From a virus, in IMG/VR virus record IMGVR_UViG_3300032093_000807, positions 1 through 24,399 of that record: a stretch of DNA of 24,399 bases; one strand, 5' to 3'. This document shows, one piece after another, positions 19,814 through 24,107 of the stretch (within the stretch, counting starts at the first letter, position 1; every line of letters begins with the position of its first letter). The notes under the pieces were generated by a model. That model had not been told where the DNA came from. It saw only the letters and a list, made by a program, of their open reading frames with translations, and searched no databases. The position numbers and the translations under genes are program-made.

Positions 19814-21358
19814 ATGGCAGGCGCATCGATTGCTCTAGCGCGCAAGAGAAGTGCGCTGAAGGCGGCTCAAAGCATTAAGAAGCAGCCGGAGGTGGTCGTC
19901 GAAGAGCCGGTGATCCCGCCTCATGTCCTCAAGGCGAGGGACAACTTCGGCTACTTCTGCGAACTGATGGGCAAGCCACCGGCTCGCCACATGAAGGAAT
20001 GGCACCGAGCATTCCTCACTAATCAGAGCAACGAACACCTGCTGGACATTGCAGGGCCCAACACCTGCCTGCTCAGTCCGCGGGGTAGCGCGAAGAGCAC
20101 GGTGCTGGGCCTGCTGCTGGGGTGGCTGATTGGCAGGCACGCGTTGGCGAAGAAGCTGCTGCGGATCCTGTACGTCTCCTACAACGTCGACGTTGCGCGC
20201 AATAAAAGCGCTGCGATCAAAAACCTGATCCTCTCGAGGGAATACCAGGAGATCTTCCCGTGTGTCCGTCTATCCAAAACCAGGACATCAGATGAGTTGT
20301 GGAGCATCGACTGGGACTTCGCCGAGGTGGATGTTCGCGGTGAGGATGCGTTCACCATCGCCTGCGCTGGCCTGAAGGGCACGATCACCTCGAAGCGAAG
20401 CTCGTTGATTGTGGTCGATGACGCCATCAAAAGCGCGGCGTCGATCGCGAACCCCGACATCCGCCGGGAGATGGAGACGAACTGGACGAACGTGATTGTG
20501 CCGACGATGTTCCAAGGCGCGCGCGCCATCGCCCTGGGCACGCGGTTCCATTTTGATGATCTGTTCGCGACCATCTTCACCGAAAAGAAGGGCTGGAAAA
20601 CGGTCGTCCAGTCGGCCCTGCGCTACGACGAGGACGGCCGGCCCAAGTCCTACTGGCCTGAGATGTGGTCGACGAAGTACCTGCTGAAGCTCCAGCACGA
20701 CGACCGCATTGCTTTCTCATACCAGTACTTGAACCAGCCGGTGCGATCCACCGAGCTGGGTGTGAGCCCCGAGCTGTTCGTGCGCGGTGAGGTGCCTGAG
20801 ACCTACGACATGGTGGGCGTCGGCATCGACCTCTCGGCGGGGATGAGCGAGCGCAATGACTGGACTGTCTTCACCCTGGCTGGCCGCGTTGACGATAAGT
20901 GCTACATCATTGATTACAGGCGCATGCGCTCGATGGGCAACATCGAGAAGGTGGAAGCGTTGTGCGAGCTGTTGATGGAGTGGAACCTGCTTGCCACCAA
21001 CGACGATGGTCAGTACTTTCCGACAAACTCACCGGTCACGATCTGGCCTGAAGTCGTGGCATACCAAAAGAGTTTCGAGGGGGACCTCAAGCGGATTCTG
21101 TTCAATGAATGGCAGCTGTACAACCTCCACATTTCTCCGGTGAAGGGTTTCCGCGGGGACAAGCTCGCCAGGCTGCGAGGGATCCTTGGCCTCTTCCAGG
21201 CCAAGAAGATCATTTTCAACAAGTACCGCGATTTCAGCTACATGATCGACGAGATCACGAACTTTGGCCACAGCCCTCACGACGACTGTGCCGACAGCCT
21301 GAACATCGTTGTCCAGGGACTGATGAAGCGCGGGGCTGCGCAAATCGAATGGACTTAA
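19814..21358 (+). CDS. terL: Terminase large subunit, 514 aa
   Basis: This is the ATP-driven motor and nuclease that packages DNA into the prohead. The Walker A motif is SPRGSAKST (residues 88-96), Walker B is SLIVVDDA (197-204), and the coupling-type ALGTRFH is at 240-246. The C-terminal RNase H-like nuclease starts at GVGIDLSAG (336-343, Asp339) and has Glu413 and the PHDDCADSL segment (488-496) as candidate metal ligands. Length is usual for the family. It is followed 9 bases later by the portal gene. All ATPase and nuclease motifs are present, so the protein should be active. Confidence 0.95.
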   Translation: MAGASIALARKRSALKAAQSIKKQPEVVVEEPVIPPHVLKARDNFGYFCELMGKPPARHMKEWHRAFLTNQSNEHLLDIAGPNTCLLSPRGSAKSTVLGLLLGWLIGRHALAKKLLRILYVSYNVDVARNKSAAIKNLILSREYQEIFPCVRLSKTRTSDELWSIDWDFAEVDVRGEDAFTIACAGLKGTITSKRSSLIVVDDAIKSAASIANPDIRREMETNWTNVIVPTMFQGARAIALGTRFHFDDLFATIFTEKKGWKTVVQSALRYDEDGRPKSYWPEMWSTKYLLKLQHDDRIAFSYQYLNQPVRSTELGVSPELFVRGEVPETYDMVGVGIDLSAGMSERNDWTVFTLAGRVDDKCYIIDYRRMRSMGNIEKVEALCELLMEWNLLATNDDGQYFPTNSPVTIWPEVVAYQKSFEGDLKRILFNEWQLYNLHISPVKGFRGDKLARLRGILGLFQAKKIIFNKYRDFSYMIDEITNFGHSPHDDCADSLNIVVQGLMKRGAAQIEWT

Positions 21359-21367: not shown

Positions 21368-23590
21368 ATGAGCCAACCCAAAACCGAGCGTTTTCGCCGC
21401 ATCCTTGAGGCCGCGCGCAAGCGTGATGGTACGGCTGGTGTTGACACGATGGTGGTCAACTCGCATCTCGCGCAGATGCGGCTATTCATGCTGCGCCAGG
21501 GTCTGGAGTTCTTCCCTGCGCAGGACACCTTTGGTTTCCGCAAGAGCTTCCTCGCGGATCTGATCCAGGACAACGAGATCGACGCGCGCCTTGAAGGCAT
21601 CGTCGATGACTTCCTGCTGGACGGTAAGGGGCTGTGGTACTTCCGCCCGGTGCAGGACACCTACCGCTTGATGTGGTTCAGCAAGGAGAACTACCGCGCC
21701 TATTACGACGCCGCGGGCCAGCTGGAAGAGGTGGAGCTCATCTATAGCTTCACCGTGCGTGATGGCATCGGCGCCATGGGCTCGATTGCCGGTGGCGATG
21801 GCGGCTCCCTGCGTTACGTCAAGCTGCAGGTTCGCCGGGACACCATCAAGGAATCCATCACGACCGAGAAGCCGAGCTTCGATGCTGGTGTCGCGACCCT
21901 GAACTACGCGCCCAACACGACGCGAACGCTGCGAAACAGCTTGGGATTCATCCCTGCTGTCGAGTCTTTCAACAATATGCGCTCGACTGGCATGGATGCC
22001 AGTGGCGAGTTCGATTGGCTCAGCGATCACATCGTGACGCACGATGAGCTGATCAAGAATATCCGAGCCAATATCACCTTCTATGGAAACCCGACCTTGG
22101 TTTCCAGCCGCCCGAAGCAGGACTTGATCGAGTCGGGCGATGGTGACGAGTTTCGTCCGACAATCAGTTCACAGGCCGGCTTCTACGCTGCGAATCGACC
22201 CTCGACGCGACTCAGTTCACCTTTGGGCGCCGGCGGTGGTGGCGGCGGGGTGAAGGTGCCTCGGATTATCGCCAACATCGAGGCCACCGATCGTGTCGCC
22301 TACATCACGCCGGACGCGGTGAGCGGCGATCAGAACCTCTACGCACGCCAGTACCGCGAGGAGCTGCGCAACGCCATGGGTGGCGTTGACGAGCTGGGCA
22401 TCAGCTCCGGCGCGACGGCATATGAAGTCAAGTCGCTGTATGGCCGGGCTGCGACAACAGCCGCTCGCAAGTGCCGCGGGCTGTTGACCTACGGCCTGTG
22501 CAAGCTGCTGGCACTTGTGCTGTTCAACGAAGAAAAGATCTTCCGCGAATCCTTTGCCGCTGCCGTTGGCCTCGAGGAGCCGCCCGTGCCGTTGCGTGAG
22601 GAGTTTGCGGATGCCGAGCAATACCAAGAGGCGGTTGCAGCATTCCAGGAGGCATACCAGCAATTCGAGCAAGCGCTGGAAGCCCAGATTGCCGAAGCGG
22701 TGCAAGCACGTCAGCTTCCGCCCGGTGTGGTTGGGCTGATCCCTGACGGCGATCGAAAGATCGAGTGGCGCTGGAAGGGGCCAGTCTTTGAGGATTCCAC
22801 AGAAGATATACTGAACTCAAGCATTGTTGTGCGCAACCTGCAGGAGCTCGGTGTTAACAGCATCGAGGCCCTCAGGTACCTCTTCCCGGATAAAACCGAC
22901 GAAGAGCGCAGCGCAATGCTTAGTGGCTATCCATTCCGAATGGCTCAAGCCACGCAGCAAAGCATTGGCACCTTCCTGTCGCTGATTCAAAACATGCGAC
23001 AGACCCCGCATCCGCAGGCTCCGGACCTCCCCCTGCTGGCGGATCCCAAGCTCGATTTGACGCCCTACGTCTATCGAGCCCTCGAATTCCTTAAGAGAGA
23101 ACTGACCTATGCAGGACAGTACAACGATGGCGACGGCAGTGGCGACCCCGCAGCCCTCGATCCCATCCAGCGTGGCCGCGCCGACCGTGGCCTCCCCGTC
23201 GATGCCGCAGGCACCCCAAGCTTCGTACCCGACGGCTCAACCCCAGGCTCCGGCTTACTCCCCGGAAGCTCCGGTTTCAGTGCCTCAGGCCAACCCGTGG
23301 CAGGCGGCGTACCAGGGTCTGCTCGCCAGCTTGAGCGCGACGCCGCAATCCCAGCCCCAGGCGTCCTACTCGGCACCGACCCAACAGGCGGCCCCTACCC
23401 CGGCGGCCTACCTGCAAGCACCGGTGAGCTACCAGGCGGCTCCCTCCGTTACGGCGCCGCTGACCTCAGCATTCCCACAAACGGCGGCCTATTCCCAGGC
23501 GATGCCGGCACAGGCGCCGAGCTACAGCAGCGAGCAGAGCGCAGCCGCGAGCGACGAGTATCTGCAAAGCGTCAGCAGCGAAAGTCTTGA
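21368..23590 (+). CDS. Portal protein, 740 aa
   Basis: The portal forms the dodecameric ring through which DNA enters and leaves the head. Features typical of portals are the helical stem region (YEVKSLYGRAATTAARKCRG), GFIPAVESFNN, and IEWRWKGPVFEDSTEDILNS with the following helices that lead into the crown. It lies directly after terL. From about residue 581 the protein continues for 160 residues of Gly/Pro/Ser/Arg-rich, probably disordered sequence to the only stop at 23588-23590. That extension overlaps the next gene in another frame. Because no earlier stop exists, it should be translated. Confidence 0.9.
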   Translation: MSQPKTERFRRILEAARKRDGTAGVDTMVVNSHLAQMRLFMLRQGLEFFPAQDTFGFRKSFLADLIQDNEIDARLEGIVDDFLLDGKGLWYFRPVQDTYRLMWFSKENYRAYYDAAGQLEEVELIYSFTVRDGIGAMGSIAGGDGGSLRYVKLQVRRDTIKESITTEKPSFDAGVATLNYAPNTTRTLRNSLGFIPAVESFNNMRSTGMDASGEFDWLSDHIVTHDELIKNIRANITFYGNPTLVSSRPKQDLIESGDGDEFRPTISSQAGFYAANRPSTRLSSPLGAGGGGGGVKVPRIIANIEATDRVAYITPDAVSGDQNLYARQYREELRNAMGGVDELGISSGATAYEVKSLYGRAATTAARKCRGLLTYGLCKLLALVLFNEEKIFRESFAAAVGLEEPPVPLREEFADAEQYQEAVAAFQEAYQQFEQALEAQIAEAVQARQLPPGVVGLIPDGDRKIEWRWKGPVFEDSTEDILNSSIVVRNLQELGVNSIEALRYLFPDKTDEERSAMLSGYPFRMAQATQQSIGTFLSLIQNMRQTPHPQAPDLPLLADPKLDLTPYVYRALEFLKRELTYAGQYNDGDGSGDPAALDPIQRGRADRGLPVDAAGTPSFVPDGSTPGSGLLPGSSGFSASGQPVAGGVPGSARQLERDAAIPAPGVLLGTDPTGGPYPGGLPASTGELPGGSLRYGAADLSIPTNGGLFPGDAGTGAELQQRAERSRERRVSAKRQQRKS

Positions 23591-24107
23591 AGTTCTCCAG
23601 CACTTCGGCGCTGAAGCCCCTGCCCTGCTGAATCGCTACGCCTGCGTCGTCGAGGACGCTCTCCTCGCCCAGGCCCAGCAGACCGCTCAGGCTCTGCAGC
23701 AAATCCAGGCCATCCAGGGTCAACTGCAGAACTCACACACCGTGATCGAGGCTGCCGCTGAGGACAATGCCGCGTATCACACCCTGCTGACCAATCCCGA
23801 GATCCTCGCTGAGTACGTCAACGAGTTCTTCGGTCCCGAAGGTCCCTACCCCACCGAGCTTCCCCAGGATCGCCTGGCCGCTGAGGTTGCCGCGAACGAG
23901 CGTCGCTTTGCCCCCCCGGCTGCGACCTATCAGCGCCCGCAAATGGAAATGCCCGCTCCCGACGTGCAGGCAACCAATGGCGGCGGTGATGATTTCTGGG
24001 CCACCTTCTCTGCCATCAGCGAGCGCAATCCCGCCGCTGCATGGCAGATGCTGAGCCAGGCTTCCCCCGAAGCGCTGCGCAGCAAGGTGCTGGTATCTGA
24101 AGGCTGA
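23109..24107 (+). CDS. Putative head scaffold protein, up to 332 aa
   Basis: A gene after the portal and before the capsid is normally the scaffold that templates prohead assembly. This one has a low-complexity N-terminal part rich in Pro, Gln, Ala and Tyr (SYPTAQPQAPAYSPEAPVSV), then a Gln-rich helix (EDALLAQAQQTAQALQQIQA) and a charged C-terminus (AAAWQMLSQASPEALRSKVL). The first ATG (23109) has AAGAGAG 8-10 bases before it and lies inside portal codon 581; ATG 23127 and 23202 are alternatives. Whatever the start, the N-terminal part overlaps the portal tail in the +1 frame. Confidence 0.65.
   Translation: MQDSTTMATAVATPQPSIPSSVAAPTVASPSMPQAPQASYPTAQPQAPAYSPEAPVSVPQANPWQAAYQGLLASLSATPQSQPQASYSAPTQQAAPTPAAYLQAPVSYQAAPSVTAPLTSAFPQTAAYSQAMPAQAPSYSSEQSAAASDEYLQSVSSESLEVLQHFGAEAPALLNRYACVVEDALLAQAQQTAQALQQIQAIQGQLQNSHTVIEAAAEDNAAYHTLLTNPEILAEYVNEFFGPEGPYPTELPQDRLAAEVAANERRFAPPAATYQRPQMEMPAPDVQATNGGGDDFWATFSAISERNPAAAWQMLSQASPEALRSKVLVSEG

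What the first reader, a model, noticed from the sequence alone, without database searches (positions are those of the whole stretch)
23109..23590. Portal tail and scaffold N-terminus encoded in two frames over 482 bases
The portal frame has no stop until 23588, and the scaffold frame opens at 23109 in the +1 frame. Both parts are low complexity: Gly/Pro/Ser/Arg in the portal frame, Pro/Gln/Ala/Tyr in the scaffold frame. The portal frame remains open largely because the scaffold frame has few Asp, Glu, Lys and Asn codons, and closes as the scaffold sequence turns acidic, so it may be a tail gained by loss of the original stop. Still, the ribosome has no earlier exit, so a portal with 160 extra residues is expected.
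Basis: partly seen in the sequence, partly recalled or inferred. Interest (0 to 1): 0.65.

Follow-up and report, generated by a model that had tools for sequence, protein, structure and literature searches.

The report
Phage portal and scaffold genes overprinted
In a widespread lineage of viruses of cyanobacteria, the same ~440-640 bases of DNA are read in two frames to make both the flexible end of the portal (the ring through which DNA enters the virus head) and the flexible start of a probable head-scaffold protein, and evolution keeps both readings intact, which is far longer than gene overlaps usually are in such viruses.

Summary
The portal frame (21368-23590) and a +1-frame ORF (23109-24107) overlap by 482 bases. 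In the window alone the open frame is only mildly improbable (P about 0.01-0.10), but comparison settles it. All 129 other S-EIV1-like loci holding both genes complete, plus 28 fetched later, keep a 443-638 nt overlap, across three clades about 50% identical in portal. The one conflicting sequence (L106) stops at its contig edge.

Both readings are under purifying selection. Portal-tail changes silent in the scaffold run at 0.38 of the free rate, and scaffold changes silent in the portal at 0.19. Doubly silent changes run freely. Portal-frame stops are almost absent, and control regions show none of this.

The portal identity is backed by fold matches; scaffold is inferred from position and predicted structure. 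The overlap joins the disordered, Gly/Pro-rich portal tail, with a conserved basic tip, to the disordered Pro/Gln/Ala scaffold N-terminus, and ends where the ordered domains begin.

A tail recently gained by loss of a stop is not supported. GenBank's S-EIV1 record omits the scaffold's overlapping N-terminus. Overprinting is near certain. The tail's function is inferred: probably a lumenal tether binding scaffold or DNA.

The parts
19814..21358 (+). terminase large subunit gene, directly upstream of the portal gene
   Evidence: phrog_38 terminase large subunit E=4.9e-70; PF17289 E=4e-5
21368..23107 (+). portal protein, ordered core (residues 1-580), coded in one frame only
   Evidence: phrog_20475 head and packaging E=1e-184; Foldseek best hits are phage portals, prob up to 1.00, on a low-confidence model; omega 0.046
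23108..23587 (+). portal C-terminal tail (residues 581-740), predicted disordered, overprinted with the scaffold N-terminus
   Evidence: open in all 92 non-redundant relatives; tail changes silent in scaffold at 0.38 of the free rate; pLDDT mostly <50
23552..23587 (+). conserved basic tip of the portal, RRVSAKRQQRKS
   Evidence: R-V-[S/P] motif in 48 of 48 window-clade portals; last 25 residues net +7.1 (clade mean) against +3.2 expected as by-product
23588..23590 (+). portal stop codon
23093..23099 (+). weak Shine-Dalgarno-like stretch (AAGAGAG) before the scaffold start; relatives carry AAAGGAG or TAAGGAG here
   Evidence: sequence; relatives
23103..23105 (+). TGA stop in the scaffold frame two codons before the scaffold ATG
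   Evidence: sequence; present in most relatives, further upstream in some
23109..24107 (+). putative scaffold gene (332 aa) starting inside the portal gene
   Evidence: invariant or near-invariant residues from M1 to the C-terminus in 40 relatives
23109..23590 (+). the 482-base overlap read in two frames
   Evidence: codon-position rates and two-frame omega with control regions
23292..23333 (+). conserved short helix of the scaffold N-terminus (NPWQAAYQGLLAS region), inside the overlap
   Evidence: P63, W64, A67 invariant; predicted helix 63-75
23577..24089 (+). scaffold helical domain (residues 157-327); starts where the overlap ends
   Evidence: structure prediction, block pLDDT mostly 56-89

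Best explanation
This is a genuine overprinted gene pair in the head-assembly module of the S-EIV1-like cyanophage lineage. SHOWN by comparison: the portal frame has no exit before 23590, the +1-frame ORF starts at an ATG (or GTG) inside the portal gene, and both frames have been under purifying selection over the whole overlap since before the sampled clades split. SUPPORTED by fold and position: the upstream protein is the portal and the downstream one a scaffold-like protein. INFERRED mechanism: the scaffold is made by independent internal initiation on the portal mRNA. The overlap is tolerated because it joins two disordered segments, the portal tail and the scaffold N-terminal arm, and stops where the ordered domains begin. 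Portal C-termini face the capsid interior in known phages, so twelve Gly/Pro-rich tails with basic tips would project into the procapsid lumen and hold the net acidic scaffold, or later the DNA, at the portal vertex.
For: All 131 entries with both genes complete (the window, one re-fetched copy of it, 129 other loci) have an overlap of 458-638 nt, and 28 further new loci have 443-545 nt. The scaffold start is ATG in most of the window and S-EIV1 clades and GTG one codon downstream in others, with AAAGGAG or TAAGGAG upstream in the S-EIV1 and marine clades. Scaffold third positions evolve about half as fast inside the overlap as outside (0.20 vs 0.43; 0.24 vs 0.40; Wilcoxon p=4e-6 and 5e-7). 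Portal-tail changes silent in scaffold 0.38 (95% CI 0.25-0.54), scaffold changes silent in portal 0.19 (0.11-0.31), doubly silent sites 0.169 against 0.145 in the core, portal-frame stops 0.5 in 263 opportunities. Both frames are constrained in every fifth of the overlap in both clades. Control regions show no such pattern. Portal fold hits. Scaffold disordered 1-156 apart from one short helix, helical 157-327; portal tail disordered. MCP gene lies downstream in all clades examined. Basic tip exceeds by-product expectation; scaffold net negative.
Against: No expression or proteomic data were available. The scaffold has no sequence or fold match, so its name rests on position and predicted architecture. 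The portal model is of low confidence (mean pLDDT 45), although its hits are consistent. The window's own ribosome-binding site is weak. The proposed lumenal function of the tail was not tested. L106 has a portal stop 63 codons into the overlap, 9 bases from the contig end.
Confidence: 0.72

Rival explanations
1. The portal tail is a non-functional read-through extension: it is translated because there is no stop, but only the scaffold frame is selected.
For: The scaffold composition favours an open portal frame: P(open) 0.097 or 0.012 in the window. The tail is low complexity and evolves faster than the core (0.38 against 0.046).
Against: Changes silent in the scaffold but altering the tail are held to 0.38 (CI 0.25-0.54) of the free rate, and tail-truncating changes to about 0.01-0.02. 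Control regions show no constraint on an unused frame. Motifs and the basic tip recur in clades about 50% identical in portal.
Confidence: 0.03
2. The scaffold really starts downstream of the overlap and only the portal is coded there, as GenBank's S-EIV1 annotation implies (AHV82225 starts at record position 59863).
For: GenBank annotation; the scaffold N-terminus is low complexity.
Against: Scaffold-altering changes silent in the portal are held to 0.19 and below 1 in every bin; MQD start, NPW and SIPSS motifs conserved; Shine-Dalgarno before the early start in S-EIV1 and marine relatives; the start codon is kept as ATG or GTG.
Confidence: 0.03
3. The region is constrained by a nucleic-acid element (packaging signal or RNA structure), not by two proteins.
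For: Reduced third-position divergence alone would fit.
Against: Doubly silent sites change at the normal rate (19.5/115 = 0.169 against 0.145); constraint follows the codon phase of both frames; overlap length varies by about 200 nt between relatives; no Rfam match in the window.
Confidence: 0.02
4. Besides the two proteins, a +1 ribosomal frameshift makes a portal-scaffold fusion that seeds assembly at the portal.
For: Same-strand +1 arrangement; a fusion would place scaffold on the portal ring. Some relatives lack the near-upstream stop.
Against: Most relatives carry a stop in the scaffold frame two codons before the start, so a shift could only occur inside the overlap; no conserved slippery site was recognised by eye, but this was not tested systematically.
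Confidence: 0.04
5. Overprinting is real, but the portal tail acts on packaged DNA or during ejection rather than on scaffold.
For: Conserved basic, Arg/Lys-rich tip.
Against: No DNA-binding domain recognised; the scaffold is net acidic and adjacent, which equally fits scaffold binding.
Confidence: 0.35

Closest known systems
Overprinted same-strand overlapping genes of viruses (survey PMC8903798)
   Same: Two proteins from one stretch in +1 phase; here both shown to be under purifying selection.
   Different: In that survey +1 overlaps have a median of 14 nt (IQR 8-26) and dsDNA viruses have short overlaps; here 443-638 nt, fixed in a lineage, between two head-assembly genes.
Lambda C/Nu3 and herpesvirus UL26/UL26.5 nested scaffold genes (own knowledge)
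   Same: Expression of a scaffold starts inside an upstream head gene.
   Different: Those are in-frame nested products sharing amino-acid sequence, and the upstream gene is a protease; here the frames differ and the upstream gene is the portal.
Lambda Rz/Rz1 (own knowledge)
   Same: Out-of-frame overlapping genes of a tailed phage, both needed in one process.
   Different: Lysis genes with Rz1 wholly embedded; here a terminal overlap of head genes.
Synechococcus phage S-EIV1 portal AHV82224 / CDS AHV82225 (KJ410740)
   Same: Homologous pair with a 554-nt overlap in the DNA.
   Different: The record annotates only the C-terminal part of the scaffold (402 nt) and therefore no overlap.

Membership tests
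Overprinted (dual-coding) gene pair | both frames open over the overlap in relatives | tested here: met
   92 of 92 non-redundant relatives open; 28 further loci
Overprinted (dual-coding) gene pair | purifying selection on each frame measured at sites silent in the other | tested here: met
   0.38 and 0.19 of the free rate with CIs below 1, controls flat
Overprinted (dual-coding) gene pair | both proteins detected | not testable with these tools
   no proteomic data held; the S-EIV1 genome paper was not in the library
Tailed-phage portal protein | portal fold | tested here: met
   top PDB hits are portals (E1004, cyanophage A-1(L), PhiV-1, T7, SPP1), prob up to 1.00, E 7e-5 to 2e-3, though the model has mean pLDDT 45 and TM-scores are low
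Tailed-phage portal protein | gene next to terminase large subunit | tested here: met
   TerL 19814-21358, portal from 21368
Tailed-phage scaffolding protein | gene between portal and major capsid protein | tested here: met
   MCP downstream in S-EIV1, marine and window clades
Tailed-phage scaffolding protein | helical C-terminal region with flexible N-terminus | tested here: met
   prediction only: disordered 1-156 apart from helix 63-75, helices 157-327
Tailed-phage scaffolding protein | homology or fold match to a known scaffold; presence in procapsid and absence from virion | tested here: inconclusive
   no PHROG, Pfam, PDB-sequence or Foldseek match; procapsid content not testable
In-frame nested scaffold (lambda Nu3 type) | same reading frame as the upstream gene | tested here: not met
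   scaffold is in the +1 frame
Programmed ribosomal frameshift product | conserved slippery site and fusion product | not tested
   only inspected by eye

The most novel reading that the evidence does not exclude
The two overprinted disordered segments are functional partners: the portal tail and the scaffold arm meet in the procapsid lumen and seed assembly at the portal vertex, so one stretch of DNA encodes both sides of the portal-scaffold contact.
Probability: 0.15. Interest if true: 0.82.

Novelty: new variant of a known kind. Interest (0 to 1): 0.64.

Why it matters
Long, selected out-of-frame overlaps are best known from small-genome viruses; +1 overlaps in a survey of virus genomes have a median of 14 nt (PMC8903798). 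Here an ~80-kb tailed-phage lineage, found in many aquatic metagenomes and represented by the isolate S-EIV1, has fixed a ~0.5-kb overlap between two head genes. It shows that overprinting in tailed phages can be missed by gene annotation (the S-EIV1 record omits it), gives a large natural data set (over 150 loci, three clades) for measuring two-frame selection, and points to an unstudied long disordered portal tail with a conserved basic tip whose role in portal-scaffold or portal-DNA contact can be tested in an isolate.

Tried and rejected
Chance open frame: rejected. Sequencing error: rejected (identical frames in other contigs). Recent stop loss: not supported, fixed in all clades. RNA or packaging element: doubly silent sites evolve freely. 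Polarising which frame is older by codon usage: contradictory, the window clade favours scaffold and the S-EIV1 clade favours portal. Finding relatives without the overlap: none among the fetched loci, including nine contigs from bacterial and archaeal bins. Naming the scaffold by sequence or fold: no matches (a single PDB sequence hit at E=0.81 was taken as chance). The S-EIV1 genome paper is not held, and literature searches found no report of this overlap.

Full report
WHAT IS THERE. The window holds a 740-aa ORF at 21368-23590 and a 332-aa ORF at 23109-24107 in the +1 frame; 482 bases are shared. The upstream protein belongs to phrog_20475, head and packaging, follows the terminase large subunit directly, and its AlphaFold model, although of low overall confidence (mean pLDDT 45), retrieves phage portals as its best matches in both libraries (phage E1004, cyanophage A-1(L), PhiV-1, T7, SPP1). 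The downstream protein has no family match. It lies between portal and major capsid protein, with residues 1-156 predicted disordered apart from one short helix and residues 157-327 helical. I call it a putative scaffold; Foldseek found no match for it.

RELATIVES. The only annotated relative in the phage collection is Synechococcus phage S-EIV1 (KJ410740; 49.7% identity over 81% of the portal). In the first two fetches, 131 entries have both genes complete: the window, one re-fetched copy of it, and 129 other loci. Every one has the overlap, 458-638 nt. A third and fourth search added 28 distinct complete loci, including a marine-looking clade about 53% identical to the window in portal, with 443-545 nt. 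The single exception is L106, whose portal frame closes 63 codons into the overlap, 9 bases before its contig ends; I treat it as unresolved, probably an assembly edge. In S-EIV1 the overlap is 554 nt, but the GenBank record starts the downstream CDS (AHV82225) at record position 59863, after the portal stop, although the same frame is open from an ATG inside the portal gene (L081:9730). The overlap has therefore been hidden by annotation.

CHANCE. For the window alone, synonymous shuffling leaves the portal frame open in 9.7% of trials, and redrawing codons by the phage's own usage in 1.2%. Over 92 non-redundant relatives (<97% core nucleotide identity), clade medians are 4.2% and 0.1% (window clade, 48) and 1.7% and 0.0% (S-EIV1 clade, 44), and all 92 are open. 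The unused frame in the portal core and in the scaffold-only region has on average 6.7 and 10.0 stops per 160 codons.

SELECTION IN BOTH FRAMES. (1) Codon-position rates: scaffold third positions, which are portal first positions, change about half as fast in the overlap as in the scaffold-only part (0.20 vs 0.43; 0.24 vs 0.40). Scaffold second positions, which are portal wobble positions, rise (0.17 vs 0.09; 0.14 vs 0.08). The position that matters most in both frames is slowest. (2) Twenty-five independent, gapless, closely related pairs: core omega 0.046; portal-tail changes silent in the scaffold 0.38 of the free rate (95% CI 0.25-0.54); scaffold changes silent in the portal 0.19 (0.11-0.31); changes silent in both frames run at 0.169, against 0.145 for silent core sites; portal-frame stops silent in the scaffold 0.5 seen in 263 weighted opportunities, where the missense rate would give about 12. 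(3) Split in five bins, both frames are constrained throughout in both clades. (4) Control: in the core and the scaffold-only region, changes silent in the real frame are indifferent to whether they alter the unused frame (0.148 vs 0.136; 0.095 vs 0.122), and new stops there are accepted (0.079 and 0.157). The pair counts use a simple site-counting method with a fixed transition weight, so the ratios are approximate, but the contrasts are large.

START SITE. In the window and S-EIV1 clades the scaffold starts at TATGCAG in 145 of 150 entries scored. In the marine clade and some window-clade members that ATG is lost and a GTG one codon downstream takes its place (TACAGTGGA). S-EIV1 has AAAGGAG and the marine clade TAAGGAG upstream; the window has only AAGAGAG. 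Most relatives have a stop in the scaffold frame two codons upstream. This fits independent internal initiation, but no expression data were available.

ANATOMY. The overlap begins at portal residue 581, right after the last predicted core helix (565-581), and ends at scaffold residue 161, where the helical domain begins (157). Two disordered segments are thus overlapped and the ordered domains are spared. The portal tail is not a mere by-product of the scaffold frame. Its last 25 residues carry +7.1 (window clade) and +5.8 (S-EIV1 clade) against +3.2 and +2.8 expected, and the rest carries -8.5 and -0.7 against +3.8 and +10.9 expected. An R-V-[S/P] motif near the C-terminus is present in 48 of 48 window-clade portals, the marine portals also end in basic clusters, and many S-EIV1-clade portals end in RRRVGKxRR-like sequences. 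The scaffold is net negative in both parts.

HOW IT WORKS. Shown: both frames are maintained as protein-coding. Inferred: the portal C-terminus faces the capsid lumen, as in known portals (own knowledge), so up to twelve flexible tails with basic tips would reach into the space filled by the acidic scaffold during assembly and by DNA afterwards. I favour scaffold capture at the portal vertex slightly over a DNA role, and neither was tested. My confidence is about 0.97 for overprinting, 0.93 for portal, 0.8 for scaffold, and 0.4 for the scaffold-tether role. The single figure given for the whole statement, 0.72, is a compromise.

NOVELTY. Overlapping genes are a known kind. A survey of virus genomes gives a median of 14 nt (IQR 8-26) for +1 overlaps (PMC8903798). 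I found no report of a long portal/scaffold overlap, within a library that lacks most subscription papers, including the S-EIV1 genome paper. I therefore file it as a new variant of a known kind.

Noticed in passing
L239:445-4223, L240, L241, L242 (capsid-gene regions of window-clade contigs G002, G001, G003, G005): The major capsid protein gene of window-clade relatives is interrupted, four times in G002; Rfam finds group I introns at the interruptions (29-70 bits, two or three at or above the curated cut-off), and L239 holds ORFs that look like homing endonucleases by eye. G004, G006 and G007 show one uninterrupted match.
   Followed up: partly
L081:11302-12453: S-EIV1's major capsid protein (phrog_1357, E=1e-19) is not annotated as such in KJ410740: the record has a minus-strand CDS (AHV82227) over most of it and only the C-terminal part as AHV82228.
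   Followed up: yes
L081:4523-7063: S-EIV1's terminase large subunit carries an intein (PF14890, residues 202-526); the window's terminase shows none.
   Followed up: yes
L222-L229: Contigs of this phage lineage sit in genome bins labelled Euryarchaeota, Crocinitomicaceae, Blastopirellula and Rhodobacteraceae, probably binning contamination.
   Followed up: no
L006:8347-9513: In a window-clade relative an endolysin-like gene lies between scaffold and capsid gene (phrog_28234, phrog_7), unlike the S-EIV1 order.
   Followed up: no
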